In this document: positions 4,490 to 32,027 of the stretch, in pieces
Numbering within the stretch: the stretch's first letter is position 1
Layout: the number at the start of each line of letters is the position of its first letter
NCBI GenBank assembly: GCA_028817975.1
Contig: JAPPOJ010000092.1
Location: 17,546-49,572, forward strand
Source of the DNA: Zetaproteobacteria bacterium
Lineage (GTDB): Bacteria > Bdellovibrionota_B > Oligoflexia > Oligoflexales > Bog-1112
Length of the DNA: 32,027 nucleotides
Direction of reading: 5' to 3'
Position numbers and translations under genes: made by a program
Notes under the pieces: model-generated
The model's input: only the letters and a program-made list of their open reading frames with translations
The model's database searches: none
What the model was told of the DNA's origin: nothing

Positions 4490-4536
4490 AGTATGACGAC
4501 ATCTTGTTGAATAAGTAAGTGGGTTGCAAAGAACGA

Positions 4537-4914
4537 CTCTAAGATGGACGGTAAGCCGGATTCTGTCTATAAGAAAACTTAAGAAACTGCCATTCATCTA
4601 GATTGCTTGTTACCAAGCAATTCAAGCGGCTTACCCGGGGTGCATCGGGCAGATGTCACAGTTGTTAAAACACTGCTCACCCCTGCTTAGCCTTGCTTCG
4701 GATAGGGTTTACCAAGCCGACATGTCACCACATCGCTGGTGAGCTCTTACCTCACCGTTTCACCATTGCCTCTTAACAAGTTAAGATCGGCTGTCTACTC
4801 TCTGTTGCACTTTCCGTCGGGTCACCCCGCCTGGCCGTTAGCCAGTATCCTGCCCTATGAAGTCCGGACTTTCCTCCCCAGCATAGCTGCGGCGGCAGTT
4901 TATCCAACTTAGAG
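4537..4914 (-). ncRNA. rnpB: RNase P RNA, bacterial class A
   Basis: On the minus strand the region has the universal block GAGGAAAGTCCGGAC near its 5' end and the matching 3' block ACAGAATCCGGCTTAC. The P1 helix closes between CTCTAAG plus TGGAT at the 5' end and GTCCA plus CTTAGAG at the 3' end, which sets the boundaries. The length of about 378 nt is that of class A. RNase P RNA is the catalytic subunit that trims the 5' leader of tRNA precursors. A consensus promoter lies directly upstream. Confidence 0.93.
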
Positions 4915-13972: not shown

Positions 13973-14037
13973 CGGAATATTTCCACACTTCATGAGCCAG
14001 GCTAAAGGAAAGTCTCTCTTAAAAACGTGGGGAAATC

Positions 14038-14643
14038 ATGGAACAATCTTTACTCCAAGCAGATCATGCAGAAATCGTTCGACATATAGAGTCTTGGCAA
14101 CAAGGAAAAGTGTGTTTGCACCAATCCGACACGCTTCCAGGACTCAGCTTCTCCCCCACACACCTACAAGGCATTCTCCGTCTGACTGCTCTCAAAGGTC
14201 GCGACCCGAATAAACCATGCCTTTCTTTGGTCAGTAGGATTGACATGGCCGTACAATGGTGGGAACCTCTCAGCACACAAGCACTTGCCAAGATTGAAGA
14301 AATCTGGCCTTCCGCGACCAGCATTATCTGTAAGGCTAACTCAGAAGCTCCTCCATCTCTGGTGAGCGCACAAGGTGAAATAGGCTTTCGCTTCCCAGCA
14401 CATTGGCCCGATCCGCAGCTCAAGCAGATCATCGACCAGCTCGGACAGCCTTATCCATCTACCAGTGTGAATAAATCCGGTGAACCTGCAATCACCGATT
14501 TTAATCAGGCGAAAGCATTCATCACAACCCAGGCAGACACCTATGTACCTGCAAATGTCAACATTCAGGGGACCCCCGCAACACAGCCTTCGAAAATCAT
14601 TCGTCTGAGTCCAGACGGCACCATCGAAGTCTTGCGGCCATAG
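14038..14643 (+). CDS. YrdC/Sua5-family threonylcarbamoyl-AMP synthase-like protein
   Basis: This family makes threonylcarbamoyl adenylate from threonine, bicarbonate and ATP for the t6A modification of tRNA, or is of the YciO type. Visible signatures are QSDTLPGLSF for the N-terminal nucleotide pocket, LKGRDPNKPCLSLVSR for the KxR...K binding face, GEIGFRFPAHW, and PSTSVNKSGEPA for the S/T-S-x-N motif. The length of 201 residues fits the single-domain YrdC form. The ribosome binding site is a GGGGAAA just before the ATG. The gene points away from the large lipoprotein gene, and tRNA-Arg follows on the other strand. Confidence 0.85.
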   Translation: MEQSLLQADHAEIVRHIESWQQGKVCLHQSDTLPGLSFSPTHLQGILRLTALKGRDPNKPCLSLVSRIDMAVQWWEPLSTQALAKIEEIWPSATSIICKANSEAPPSLVSAQGEIGFRFPAHWPDPQLKQIIDQLGQPYPSTSVNKSGEPAITDFNQAKAFITTQADTYVPANVNIQGTPATQPSKIIRLSPDGTIEVLRP

Positions 14644-28215: not shown

Positions 28216-29346
28216 ATGCCTCATCATCTTGACTCATTTCGGCTTGAAGAATACTTAGCACCACGTGAGTTTGCCGCTCAATACATGTTTTGCGCATCTG
28301 ACTTAGAAAGTCGCACAATCCAACAAGTTCTTGATCTACTCAGCCCCAAGGAAAAAGAGCTGTTTTTGAACTTACCACTTAGCTATACGCACACCCAAGG
28401 AGATATACAACTCCGCCAGCAAATAGCTTCCCTTTATAGGAAAATTCATGCTGACAATGTCTTATGTTTTGCAGGAGCCGAAGAGGCCATTTACGCAACA
28501 GCACGGGTTTTCCTCAAGTCACAAGACCACGCCATTGCCATTACCCCTTGTTACCAAAGCCTGAAGAGTGTGGCAAAAAGTATCTGTAGTATTTCAACCG
28601 TCGACCTCGAACTCATCCACGGGGAGTGGGCTTTAAATGTAGATCGCATTGCGCAACAAATCCGGCCAAATACGAGAGTCCTGTTTCTGAACTTCCCTCA
28701 TAATCCAACAGGCTTTGTACCTTCATCTGAGGTCTTTCAGTCCATCATGGACCTAGCTCAAGCACATGGGATCATCGTCTTCTCAGATGAGGTGTATCGC
28801 GGCATTGAACTGAACCCACAAGACCAGTTACCCAGCGCAAGTGAACTCTACTCAGAAGCCATCTCTCTTGGAGTGATGTCAAAATCATTCGGCTTTGCTG
28901 GCCTGCGTATTGGCTGGGTGACTTCCCAAAACCCAGAACTCCTGAGTAAACTCTCAAAGTTCAAGCACTATTTATCCATCTGCAACAGCGCACCTAGCGA
29001 GTGGCTCGCAACAGCTATCTTAAGAAATAGTGACATCGTGTTAAGAGAAAATAATCGCCTGGTCAAAGAAAATTACAAAATCGTCAAAAACTACTTCAAA
29101 ACACAGCCACACCTCTTCCAATGGATCGAACCCAAAGGAGGCTGTACCGCCTATCCTAAATACTTAGGTGCAGGAAATATCCAAAGCATTGCAGAGCAGC
29201 TACTTCAAAACAAAGGGGTGGTCATCTTACCAGACTGGGTCTACGAGCAAAACAACCAGCACTTTCGCATATCCTTTGGTCGAAAAAACTGCCCCGAAGC
29301 CCTCAAACACTTCTCAGACTTTTTCAGCGAATACAAAACAAGGTGA
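28216..29346 (+). CDS. PLP-dependent aminotransferase, class I/II
   Basis: A fold-type I aminotransferase of 376 residues. Lys 223 in MSKSFGFAGLRIGW is the Schiff-base lysine. Other cofactor contacts are Asn 160 in LNFPHNPTGF, Asp 191 and Tyr 194 in FSDEVYRG, and Arg 231 in the GLRIG loop. A C-terminal Arg in HFRISFGR should hold the substrate carboxylate. Which amino acid it acts on cannot be read from the sequence. The two-base spacing from the YheO/DauR-type regulator suggests that regulator controls it and that its substrate is the inducer. Confidence 0.88.
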   Translation: MPHHLDSFRLEEYLAPREFAAQYMFCASDLESRTIQQVLDLLSPKEKELFLNLPLSYTHTQGDIQLRQQIASLYRKIHADNVLCFAGAEEAIYATARVFLKSQDHAIAITPCYQSLKSVAKSICSISTVDLELIHGEWALNVDRIAQQIRPNTRVLFLNFPHNPTGFVPSSEVFQSIMDLAQAHGIIVFSDEVYRGIELNPQDQLPSASELYSEAISLGVMSKSFGFAGLRIGWVTSQNPELLSKLSKFKHYLSICNSAPSEWLATAILRNSDIVLRENNRLVKENYKIVKNYFKTQPHLFQWIEPKGGCTAYPKYLGAGNIQSIAEQLLQNKGVVILPDWVYEQNNQHFRISFGRKNCPEALKHFSDFFSEYKTR

Positions 29347-29444
29347 ATATCAAGAATGCGTGTTCAATCCACAGCGCTCTGAACAATCGTCTGTTAGGAC
29401 GAGGAAAGCAAGCACCTTCAACAAGAAAAAGCCACCACCCCTGC

Positions 29445-30935
29445 TTACTCTAACGAAGGTGCCACAAGATCTGCTTGCGACATCAAACGCTGTAAAAGCT
29501 TTCCATGACCTGGCAAACAAATATCCGCACAGATCTGAATGGCGGTCCGACAACTGGCAAGGAGCTCTGCAATCGAAACCGCATGCACTGCTCGCCGCCC
29601 ACTCGCACGCGTAGGGCCAGCGGCCAATCGCTTATTCAATAAGAGTGTGCCGTCCACCTCCTTCCCAGCATACACCTTCAGCTGACCGCCACACAGCAGC
29701 CGCGGATCACTGCGCAAGGCCTGCGTCATCCGCTGCAAGCTACAGTTGTGCACATGTACCGGGACAGAACCCACAAAGTAATTTTCAAGATCAGCGACTT
29801 CCAAGTTGTAGACCTTCACCGAACGAGAAGAGGTCCGCTCACGCACCTGACGTACGGCCACGAAGCGTGGAGTGTAAGCACCCGAAGGCTTGTGCACCGC
29901 GGCCTGCACCCTCACACGACTGCCCTGCGCAAACAAACGCGCCATTTCATCTGCCGTGATATAGCCCTGGTCCGTATAAATGGGATGATTGCCCGTCACA
30001 CGTAGCTTGCCTTCGGCACCGTAGTCGATTTCCAAGAGGCGGTTGTCTACACTCTGGTAGACCGCCGTAACCATTTTAAGCACACATGACTGCGCCTCCA
30101 GATCACAGGCATACACCTGCGGGGGCTGGTTAGGGTCAAACCCCCGTACCAGGTGCCCAATCTCCCGCTGCCCCTCTGCAGTCCACACCAGCGTCCCTTC
30201 GGGAAAACACACCACCTCTTTTGCCCATTCCGTTTCCTCCTGCCACTGCGCAACCTCTTGCTGCAACCCTAACAAACTTTCCTGATAGGTCCTTAACGCA
30301 CTCAGACCCTGGTTGTAGCAGCCAAACGCCGCCTCCAGCAGCTGCTGGACCTCATCAAAGTACTCTTTTTTTTGTGCTGCAGCTTGCTGTACGGCTTGTT
30401 TGAGTGCCTCCAGCGCAGGAAACATTTCGGTATGCAGCCGGTGCCGACTACGATTACAAGTACGGGCAATGGCAGTGGGTTGACCCTGACGTTGGGTAAA
30501 ACGCGACTCTACATCCTCTAGCTGACGAAACAGGTCATCACGGTAACACGAGGACGCCAACGAGGAAGCATAAGCTTCCAGATACTGCGCTAGACGCCGC
30601 AAGGTTTCCAACTCCTGCTGGCAGACATAATACTGCTCCCGCTGAGACTCAATCGTTTGTTCCAACAGCCGCGTTTGGGCCTGCTGATCATTGAGCTGGA
30701 CCACTTTCAACTGGTGCGAAACATAACAGACTTCGAAGGCAGCATATGCTTCACTCGCCCGTTCCACCGCACTGAGTGCCGCCCGAAAATGCCCCACAGC
30801 TTGGTTTAAAAACGACTGTGTGTAAGCATTCCCTTCTAAAGCTTGGGTTTCTGGAGTCGCTTGCACAGAACTGCACCACAGCACAGGCAAGAGTAAGGGG
30901 ATCATATAAGAGACCAATAACCTGCGATAACTCAT
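29445..30935 (-). CDS. Secreted protein with coiled coil and C-terminal Hint (intein-like) domain
   Basis: The start at 30935 follows AGAGGAG by six bases and begins a signal peptide (residues 1-26, cleavage after SVQA). This gives a 496-residue precursor; the upstream 27 codons are not protein-like. Residues 30-240 are helical, Gln/Glu-rich coiled coil. From Cys 243 (CFPEGTLVWTAEGQREI) to His 396-Asn 397 (SVPVHVHNC) there is a complete Hint domain: block A Cys, the GNHPIYT His at about 317, and terminal His-Asn followed by Cys 398. Hint domains cleave or splice themselves. The remaining 99 residues (398-496) contain five cysteines and no known fold. This resembles polymorphic-toxin Hint proteins, but no immunity gene is adjacent. 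Confidence 0.85.
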   Translation of the reverse strand: MSYRRLLVSYMIPLLLPVLWCSSVQATPETQALEGNAYTQSFLNQAVGHFRAALSAVERASEAYAAFEVCYVSHQLKVVQLNDQQAQTRLLEQTIESQREQYYVCQQELETLRRLAQYLEAYASSLASSCYRDDLFRQLEDVESRFTQRQGQPTAIARTCNRSRHRLHTEMFPALEALKQAVQQAAAQKKEYFDEVQQLLEAAFGCYNQGLSALRTYQESLLGLQQEVAQWQEETEWAKEVVCFPEGTLVWTAEGQREIGHLVRGFDPNQPPQVYACDLEAQSCVLKMVTAVYQSVDNRLLEIDYGAEGKLRVTGNHPIYTDQGYITADEMARLFAQGSRVRVQAAVHKPSGAYTPRFVAVRQVRERTSSRSVKVYNLEVADLENYFVGSVPVHVHNCSLQRMTQALRSDPRLLCGGQLKVYAGKEVDGTLLLNKRLAAGPTRASGRRAVHAVSIAELLASCRTAIQICADICLPGHGKLLQRLMSQADLVAPSLE

Positions 30936-31193
30936 CTTCGCTCCTCTTGTGTACGCAGCCACAACGGGCCTGCTGCGCGCGCCAACTTTTTTCCCGTTCC
31001 TGCCGGCAGTATGCATCGCAACTCATGAAAAAATAATAAGATATGGGAATAAAAAGCACTGCGCATCCCCTGCCAGGTGACCCACCACCTCTTCCCCAAG
31101 CCGCACCGCGAGACGTGATTTAGGCCCAAATAAGGCACCGTGTAGCAGCAACAATGACACCGGCTTTCGGCACAACTCGCGCTTTAACCTCAC

Positions 31194-31221
31194 TTGCCCG
31201 CCTGATGCAACAGGATAAAAT
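31194..31221 (+). promoter_or_regulatory. Candidate promoter for the right-edge gene
   Basis: TTGCCC (31194-31199, four of six) is 16 bases before TAAAAT (31216-31221, five of six). Transcription near 31228 would give a leader of about 390 bases, covering the hairpins listed below. Confidence 0.4.
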
Positions 31222-31341
31222 CGTCCCCCAAACCCCACAAAAGAGACGCTGGACGCACGCATTTTCACGCGCCCGCGCATGCCCCATTTTGGTCCGAGAA
31301 AAAAAACAGTGTAGGCTAGAAGTCAGAGTAGGAAAGCCAGA

Positions 31342-31357
31342 GGAGCCAAGCGGCTCC
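31342..31357 (+). other. GC-rich tetraloop hairpin
   Basis: GGAGCC (31342-31347) and GGCTCC (31352-31357) form a perfect six-base stem with loop AAGC. No T run follows, so it is not a terminator; it is probably a structural element of the leader. Confidence 0.45.
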
Positions 31358-31392
31358 CCTGAATGATTCACCCCTTGCAAAAGGAGCAAACC

Positions 31393-31398
31393 ATGTAG
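31393..31398 (+). other. Start-stop minimal ORF with strong ribosome binding site
   Basis: AAAAGGAG (31379-31386) is followed after six bases by ATG and immediately TAG. A ribosome would initiate and terminate on the first codon. Such one-codon frames are known to stall ribosomes in bacteria. It sits in the leader upstream of the two competing stems. Confidence 0.35.
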
Positions 31399-31416
31399 GA
31401 CCTCGGACGACATCGC

Positions 31417-31459
31417 TGCCGCATGAGGATGGATACTTTACAGCGGCATCCGTCCTCAT
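31417..31459 (+). promoter_or_regulatory. Two mutually exclusive stems, attenuator-like
   Basis: Stem A pairs TGCCGC (31417-31422) with GCGGCA (31443-31448). Stem B pairs ATGAGGATGG (31423-31432) with CCGTCCTCAT (31450-31459), ten pairs with one G-U. Their arms interleave, with zero and one base for the crossing loops, so a pseudoknot is unlikely and the two should exclude each other. Confidence 0.45.
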
Positions 31460-31615
31460 TGTAACAAGGTTTTTCCCTGACAACAAAATATTCGGGTCAG
31501 AGATCGGGCAGCGCTGTGTCTTCCACCAACTAGAGCGATGTTTTTGCGCCGCGGTGGACTGCATGTGCCACGGTGTGCGCGCCCAAATCTCTTGTGTGAA
31601 GAATGAGGACAATTA

Positions 31616-32027
31616 ATGATGCGACTCGAAACCATTGATTATAGCCACGCCAAAAGCCACGCCATCTTTCAAGATCTGGCCGATACCTTCAACCAAGGCC
31701 CAGCGGAGCAACTCACCGAGTTTGCTTTTGCGCGCACGGGTGGCTCCGCCTTTACCCGGGCGATGTACTACAGCCAGGTCAACCCGGATGGTCTGGCCCA
31801 ACTGGCCAACAGCCCCCGCAATGTGGCCTTCTTAAGCGATTGCGACAGCCGCCAGATCACCCCGCCGTATGGACAATTGTGCAAGCGCAAGGCGAAAAAC
31901 GCTGCAGTGACGCGCAAATCCATCGTGAGCTTTGATCTCGATTTTAAAGACTGGATGCCCGAGTTTCCCACCCTGAAAAAAGCTGCCAAACGTGAGTTTG
32001 CCTTAGGCTTTGCCAGTAGCATGCACC
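31616..32027 (+). CDS. Unrecognised protein, 5' part only
   Basis: An open frame starts at ATG 31616 (with a second ATG at 31619) after GAGGAC and runs without a stop to the last base, giving 137 residues of a truncated gene. It begins MMRLETIDYSHAKSHAIFQD. Later parts read RNVAFLSDCDSRQITPPYGQ and SIVSFDLDFKDWMPEFPTLK. The D-x-D in SFDLDFKD followed by a helix is a pattern seen in archaeo-eukaryotic primase-like replication proteins, but also elsewhere, so this is only a hint. Its codon use and even coding pattern support a real gene. It lies after a structured leader and a gene-free interval, which marks a likely accessory region. Confidence 0.6.
   Translation, partial: MMRLETIDYSHAKSHAIFQDLADTFNQGPAEQLTEFAFARTGGSAFTRAMYYSQVNPDGLAQLANSPRNVAFLSDCDSRQITPPYGQLCKRKAKNAAVTRKSIVSFDLDFKDWMPEFPTLKKAAKREFALGFASSMH

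What the first reader, a model, noticed from the sequence alone, without database searches (positions are those of the whole stretch)
29445..30935. Secreted Hint-domain protein with an uncharacterised cysteine-containing C-terminal domain
The precursor has a signal peptide, a long coiled coil, and a Hint domain with its full set of self-cleavage residues (Cys 243, His about 317, His-Asn 396-397, Cys 398). After these come 99 residues with five cysteines that match no family I know. In polymorphic toxins a Hint domain releases a C-terminal effector, but no immunity gene is adjacent here. It could be an exported self-processing adhesin, a lipid- or sterol-modified protein as in hedgehog, or an effector for predation or competition.
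Basis: partly seen in the sequence, partly recalled or inferred. Interest (0 to 1): 0.6.

Follow-up and report, generated by a model that had tools for sequence, protein, structure and literature searches.

The report
Hint polymorphic-toxin relative without toxin
This gene encodes a secreted, apparently self-cutting member of a bacterial toxin family found in several copies in this genome; it keeps the delivery and self-cutting parts, but its supposed new C-terminal domain is only the connector to which sibling proteins attach their toxins, and here the toxin and its antidote gene are absent.

Summary
The open reading frame is real: 496 aa on the minus strand (ATG 30935, stop at 29445, good Shine-Dalgarno site), with a signal-peptide-like N terminus, a helical region, a PT-HINT domain with its catalytic residues, and a 99-residue tail with five cysteines. 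Searching the host genome shows what the tail is. Three paralogues (40, 37 and 29% identical) share helix, Hint and tail, but two continue past it into different tips, one being Tox-HNH-EHHH (E 1.7e-23). One is followed by an overlapping immunity-like gene and an orphan linker-toxin cassette. A profile of the tail built without the window copy matches residues 398-487 (E 8.5e-13; 45 bits against 13 for the best of 2,000 shuffles). So the 'uncharacterised effector domain' is the family's pretoxin linker, and the window protein stops 9 residues after it. No tip or immunity gene remains downstream. Best reading: a toxin-less member of a polymorphic-toxin family so far seen only in this genome and analogous to Neisseria MafB. 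Coding constraint looks intact, but the linker has become charged, so relic and retained toxin-less carrier remain open. Hint-less paralogues raise the untested possibility that the Hint splices rather than only cleaves. Interest is modest.

The parts
29445..30935 (-). Whole gene: toxin-less member of a Hint polymorphic-toxin family, 496 aa plus stop
   Evidence: Translation; paralogues in the same genome at 40, 37 and 29% identity
30858..30935 (-). Signal-peptide-like N terminus (residues 1-26, MSYRRLLVSYMIPLLLPVLWCSSVQA); no lipobox seen
   Evidence: Read from the sequence; similar hydrophobic N termini in the paralogues; no signal-peptide predictor was available
30941..30949 (-). Shine-Dalgarno-like AGAGGAG just upstream of ATG 30935
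   Evidence: Sequence
30210..30857 (-). Helix-rich N-terminal domain (residues 27-242), conserved among paralogues of this genome; no curated Pfam family
   Evidence: 33% identity to the C141 paralogue over 236 aa; only sub-threshold coiled-coil matches
29745..30209 (-). Hint domain (residues 243-397) with Cys1 (243), block-B His (317), terminal His-Asn (396-397)
   Evidence: PT-HINT, TIGR01445, TIGR01443 over cut-off; 2lwy match; alignment
29448..29744 (-). Pretoxin linker (residues 398-496) with +1 Cys398 and Cys 415, 462, 469, 473; ends at the point where siblings begin their toxin tips
   Evidence: Profile made without the window copy hits 398-487 at E 8.5e-13, best of 2,000 shuffles 13 bits; 41% identity to the C141 linker over 73 aa; 10 linker places in the genome

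Best explanation
The gene is a toxin-less member of a polymorphic-toxin family that, within everything searched, occurs only in this genome. SHOWN by sequence: signal-peptide-like start, shared helical domain, complete intein-type Hint domain, and the family's cysteine-bearing pretoxin linker. In two siblings the same linker is followed by different toxin tips, one with an overlapping immunity-like gene, and orphan linker-toxin-immunity cassettes lie beside them. In the window copy the protein ends 9 residues after the linker, and the next gene, convergent, ends 98 bp away, so tip and immunity gene are gone. INFERRED mechanism: the protein is exported by Sec and perhaps crosses the outer membrane by the type II system encoded in this genome. 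The Hint then acts at Cys243 and Asn397, freeing the part after Asn397. In siblings that part is linker plus toxin; here it would be only a 99-residue linker with no toxic activity. The tip was most likely lost by deletion or recombination at the linker-tip junction, the point where cassettes are exchanged. Whether the remainder is a decaying relic or a kept toxin-less carrier is undecided.
For: Paralogues C141, C147 and C90 align over the whole length. The C141 tip is Tox-HNH-EHHH, 1.7e-23. C147 has an overlapping 151-aa immunity-like ORF, then an orphan linker-toxin ORF and a 103-aa ORF; the orphan toxin and the 103-aa ORF both have homologues in the same order at C6. Linker profile excluding the window matches the window tail at E 8.5e-13. 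No tip or immunity sequence of the family anywhere in the window, while the linker control hits at 3e-15 (the one 1e-4 match is a chance hit in a Sua5 gene). Catalytic Hint residues invariant. Coding constraint: third codon positions are near saturation (0.24-0.40 identical to C141/C147) while second positions are 0.62-0.66 identical in Hint and linker. T2SS GspD and GspE present.
Against: The linker core of this copy has 10 charged residues and GRAVY 0.10, against 2-3 charged and 0.92-1.10 in the Hint-bearing siblings, and one conserved Cys has moved. So it may have acquired a different role, or be decaying. No experiment shows export, Hint activity or toxicity for any member. The immunity-like ORFs in C147 and C6 match no Pfam family, so their role rests on position.
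Confidence: 0.82

Rival explanations
1. The window protein is a maintained toxin-less carrier or adhesin: helical domain and linker are displayed on the surface and function by themselves, for example by occupying the receptor or exporter used by the toxic siblings.
For: Open, full-length frame with conserved catalytic residues and codon-position bias in all three parts including the linker; the linker is no more diverged than the helical domain; at least one other copy (C186, L033:742-1422) also stops shortly after the linker.
Against: The codon signal may date from before the loss of the tip; the linker has lost its hydrophobic character; no orthologue in 55 other genomes of the phylum to measure selection.
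Confidence: 0.35
2. The Hint acts as a type-A bacterial intein-like domain that SPLICES the helical domain onto the linker (or linker-toxin), rather than only cleaving.
For: Both Cys1 and a +1 Cys are invariant in the four Hint members; two paralogues (C186 and C58) have helical domain and linker joined directly with no Hint, as a spliced product would be.
Against: Polymorphic-toxin Hint domains are generally thought to cleave (PMC3482391); in this genome a second Hint group lacks both Cys1 and block-B His yet keeps the terminal His-Asn; not testable by sequence.
Confidence: 0.25
3. The 99-residue tail is itself a small effector or membrane-acting peptide released by the Hint.
For: In siblings the linker is strongly hydrophobic and glycine/alanine rich with conserved Cys, so it might insert into membranes or carry the tip across them.
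Against: The same segment sits between Hint and true toxin tips in siblings and heads their orphan cassettes, so it is a shared connector; the window copy is the least hydrophobic of the Hint members.
Confidence: 0.07
4. Assembly artefact: the toxin tip is missing because contigs were mis-joined in a repeat-rich toxin locus.
For: 314 contigs, several toxin loci end at contig ends (C141, C6, C250, C313).
Against: The window copy is divergent (about 41% in the linker) and so not an assembly-confusing repeat; the frame ends cleanly and is followed by unique chromosomal sequence with a convergent aminotransferase.
Confidence: 0.04

Closest known systems
MafB toxins of Neisseria (MafB-N/DUF1020; class MafBI with Hint) and their maf islands
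   Same: Signal sequence, lineage-restricted conserved N-terminal domain, Hint in some members and none in others, variable C-terminal toxin, immunity gene, N-terminally truncated orphan cassettes downstream (PMC7738311, PMC9263626, PMC3482391).
   Different: No DUF1020 match here; no MafA-like partner was looked for; the window copy has no toxin tip or immunity gene; the cysteine-bearing linker has no counterpart found.
Polymorphic toxins with PT-HINT, T2SS/Sec-dependent class (Zhang et al. 2012, PMC3482391)
   Same: Signal peptide, Hint just before the variable part, toxin tip such as Tox-HNH-EHHH, cassettes in siblings.
   Different: The window member lacks the defining tip and immunity gene.
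Bacterial intein-like (BIL) domains, e.g. solved domain 2lwy
   Same: Fold family and catalytic residues; Cys1, block-B His, terminal His-Asn.
   Different: Whether it splices or only cleaves is unknown; only 19.7 bits in the sequence search.
Hedgehog/Hog Hint proteins
   Same: Hint superfamily.
   Different: Keeps the intein-type terminal His-Asn and +1 Cys; no evidence of a sterol-recognition region.

Membership tests
Polymorphic toxin system (Zhang et al. 2012) | N-terminal export signal or trafficking domain | tested here: met
   Signal-peptide-like start read from the sequence, no predictor run; conserved N-terminal domain in paralogues
Polymorphic toxin system (Zhang et al. 2012) | Processing domain (HINT) directly before the variable part | tested here: met
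   PT-HINT 250-397, over the curated cut-off
Polymorphic toxin system (Zhang et al. 2012) | Variable C-terminal toxin domain in this protein | tested here: not met
   Protein ends 9 residues after the linker; no tip in the window. Met in siblings C141 and probably C147
Polymorphic toxin system (Zhang et al. 2012) | Immunity gene immediately downstream | tested here: not met
   98 bp to the convergent aminotransferase, no ORF for it. An immunity-like ORF follows at C147
Polymorphic toxin system (Zhang et al. 2012) | Family diversified by exchange of cassettes that share the junction | tested here: met
   For the family, not for this locus: orphan linker-toxin ORFs at C147, C6 and C186, with linkers 75-82% identical to C141's at C147 and C6
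MafB family | MafB-N / DUF1020 domain | tested here: not met
   No such Pfam match in window protein or paralogues
Bacterial intein-like domain, type A | Cys1, block-B TxxH, terminal HN and a +1 nucleophile | tested here: met
   Cys243, T314xxH317, H396-N397, Cys398
Bacterial intein-like domain, type A | Self-splicing or self-cleaving activity | not testable with these tools
   Needs protein expression
Hedgehog-type lipid-modified Hint protein | Sterol-recognition region and ester formation at Gly-Cys | not tested
   No matching family in Pfam or NCBIfam; chemistry not testable here

The most novel reading that the evidence does not exclude
A polymorphic-toxin family with its own helical leader and a new cysteine-bearing pretoxin linker, in which the Hint splices leader to linker-toxin, and in which toxin-less members (window, C186) are kept as non-toxic partners or competitors of the toxic ones.
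Probability: 0.15. Interest if true: 0.55.

Novelty: new member of a known kind. Interest (0 to 1): 0.3.

Why it matters
It replaces a guess about a new effector domain with a testable placement: the 'domain' is a shared connector. It adds a family whose N-terminal domain and linker match no curated family and were found in no other genome searched, comparable to MafB in Neisseria. Because the same genome holds Hint-bearing, Hint-less, toxin-bearing and toxin-less versions of one protein, it is a handy natural set for asking whether polymorphic-toxin Hint domains splice or cleave, and what becomes of such proteins once the toxin is lost.

Tried and rejected
Single-sequence AlphaFold2 of residues 236-496 gave pLDDT 41 and was not used. 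Search of the 56-58 held genomes of the phylum: the family occurs only in this genome; two other genomes match C141 only over its HNH tip and a low-complexity stretch before it. Public genome, viral and plasmid collections: only Hint domains or HNH tips in other contexts, no shared leader or linker; the pattern-based genome and viral scans have limited reach, so absence elsewhere is not proven. The match of the C186 tip to window 14023-14109 (E 1e-4) was rejected: it lies in a Sua5 gene. A local frameshift as cause of the polar linker was looked for in the DNA alignment; the window copy aligns to the C141 and C147 siblings without frame-changing gaps through the linker core. No convincing promoter or terminator in 29300-31700.

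Full report
What is there. The gene is real and the coordinates are right, but it lies on the minus strand: ATG at 30935, stop at 29445, 496 codons, preceded by AGAGGAG at a normal distance. The N terminus reads as a signal peptide without a lipobox. PT-HINT covers residues 250-397 over its curated cut-off, and the NCBIfam intein N- and C-terminal models hit 243-321 and 374-398. The nearest solved structure by sequence is the bacterial intein-like domain 2lwy, query 243-397. Cys243, Thr314-x-x-His317, His396-Asn397 and Cys398 are present and invariant in four paralogues. The tail 398-496 has five cysteines, as reported.

What the tail is. The host genome (3.1 Mb, 314 contigs) contains three further full paralogues at C141, C147 and C90 (40, 37 and 29% identical). 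They align with the window protein through helical domain, Hint and tail. At C141 the protein goes on into Tox-HNH-EHHH (E 1.7e-23). At C147 it goes on into a different C terminus without a Pfam name, overlaps an immunity-like 151-aa ORF, and is followed by an orphan ORF made of the second half of the tail plus another toxin-like tip, then a 103-aa ORF. C6 repeats the orphan toxin and small-ORF pair with homologous proteins. The tail occurs at 10 places in this genome and in none of 55 other genomes of the phylum. To avoid circularity I built a profile from five tails without the window copy: it hits window residues 398-487 at 45 bits, E 8.5e-13, while the best of 2,000 shuffles of the window tail reached 13 bits. 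So the tail is the shared connector between Hint and toxin tip, and only nine residues follow it.

What is missing. The stop codon falls where siblings begin their tips. The neighbouring aminotransferase (28216-29346, plus strand) is convergent and ends 98 bp away. None of the tip or immunity sequences of the family is found in the window. Hence this copy is toxin-less and immunity-less. C186 has another short, Hint-less member that ends soon after the linker, and the C90 protein ends 30-odd residues after its linker without a recognised toxin, so loss of tips seems to have happened more than once.

Relic or retained. Against the siblings, third codon positions are close to saturation while second positions remain 0.62-0.66 identical in Hint and linker, which speaks for long protein-level constraint. 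It does not date the loss of the tip. The linker core of the window copy has ten charged residues and a GRAVY of 0.10, against two or three and about 1.0 in C141, C147 and C90. The C141 and C147 linkers are 83% identical while their helical domains are only 43% identical, as expected if linkers are homogenised by cassette exchange; the window copy (35-37% in the full linker) has left that exchange. I regard relic and retained toxin-less carrier as about equally likely.

How it would work. Inferred: Sec export, perhaps passage through the type II system whose GspD and GspE are in the genome, then Hint chemistry at Cys243 and Asn397. In siblings this would free or join linker plus toxin; here it frees or joins only the linker. 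Two Hint-less paralogues (C186, C58) have helical domain and linker fused directly. Together with the invariant +1 Cys this makes splicing a fair alternative to cleavage; it needs an experiment.

What it compares with. It works like the Hint-bearing MafB proteins of Neisseria: signal sequence, lineage-restricted N-terminal domain, optional Hint, variable tip, truncated cassettes (PMC7738311, PMC9263626), and it fits the Sec/T2SS class of polymorphic toxins with HINT, for which lineage-specific N-terminal domains are on record (PMC3482391). It is not a MafB (no DUF1020), and by the membership test the window protein itself is not a complete polymorphic toxin, since tip and immunity gene were tested for and not found.

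Verdict. Observation confirmed; interpretation partly supported: right family, wrong reading of the C terminus. New member of a known kind; interest 0.3.

Noticed in passing
window 31616-32026 (+, runs off the contig end); also L010:5960-7114, L008:3395-4606, L030:2149-3306, L033:2188-3400: A primase-like ORF of about 385 aa with the start of a DUF927 domain is present in about 20 copies in this genome (many 80-95% identical) and lies beside most of the toxin loci, but also beside many other secreted-protein clusters. The window copy is a distant relative (about 29%). It looks like a mobile or multi-copy gene of the accessory regions.
   Followed up: partly
L030:3745-4848 (-), L031:2149-3102 (-), L032:3-776 (+): A second group of Hint proteins in the same genome with another leader and linker; in the two copies that cover these sites, Cys1 is replaced by Gly and the block-B His is lost, while the terminal His-Asn is kept in all three, so these Hints may only do the Asn step or be inactive.
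   Followed up: partly
L034:2151-3779 (-): Hint-less paralogue (helical leader plus linker) whose C terminus matches the immunity family Imm45 (E 4e-9): an odd fusion of a toxin-type leader with an immunity-like domain.
   Followed up: no
L008:4638-5978 (-): C147 array: main Hint toxin, overlapping immunity-like ORF, orphan linker-toxin, small ORF. The orphan toxin and small ORF have homologues in the same order at C6 (L010:7326-8071); none of these ORFs has a Pfam match.
   Followed up: partly
L033:742-1422 (+): Second toxin-less member: helical leader and linker without Hint, ending about 14 residues after the linker, just downstream of a linker-toxin cassette.
   Followed up: partly
window 4536-4911 (-): RNase P RNA class A, complete (309 bits); ordinary.
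   Followed up: yes
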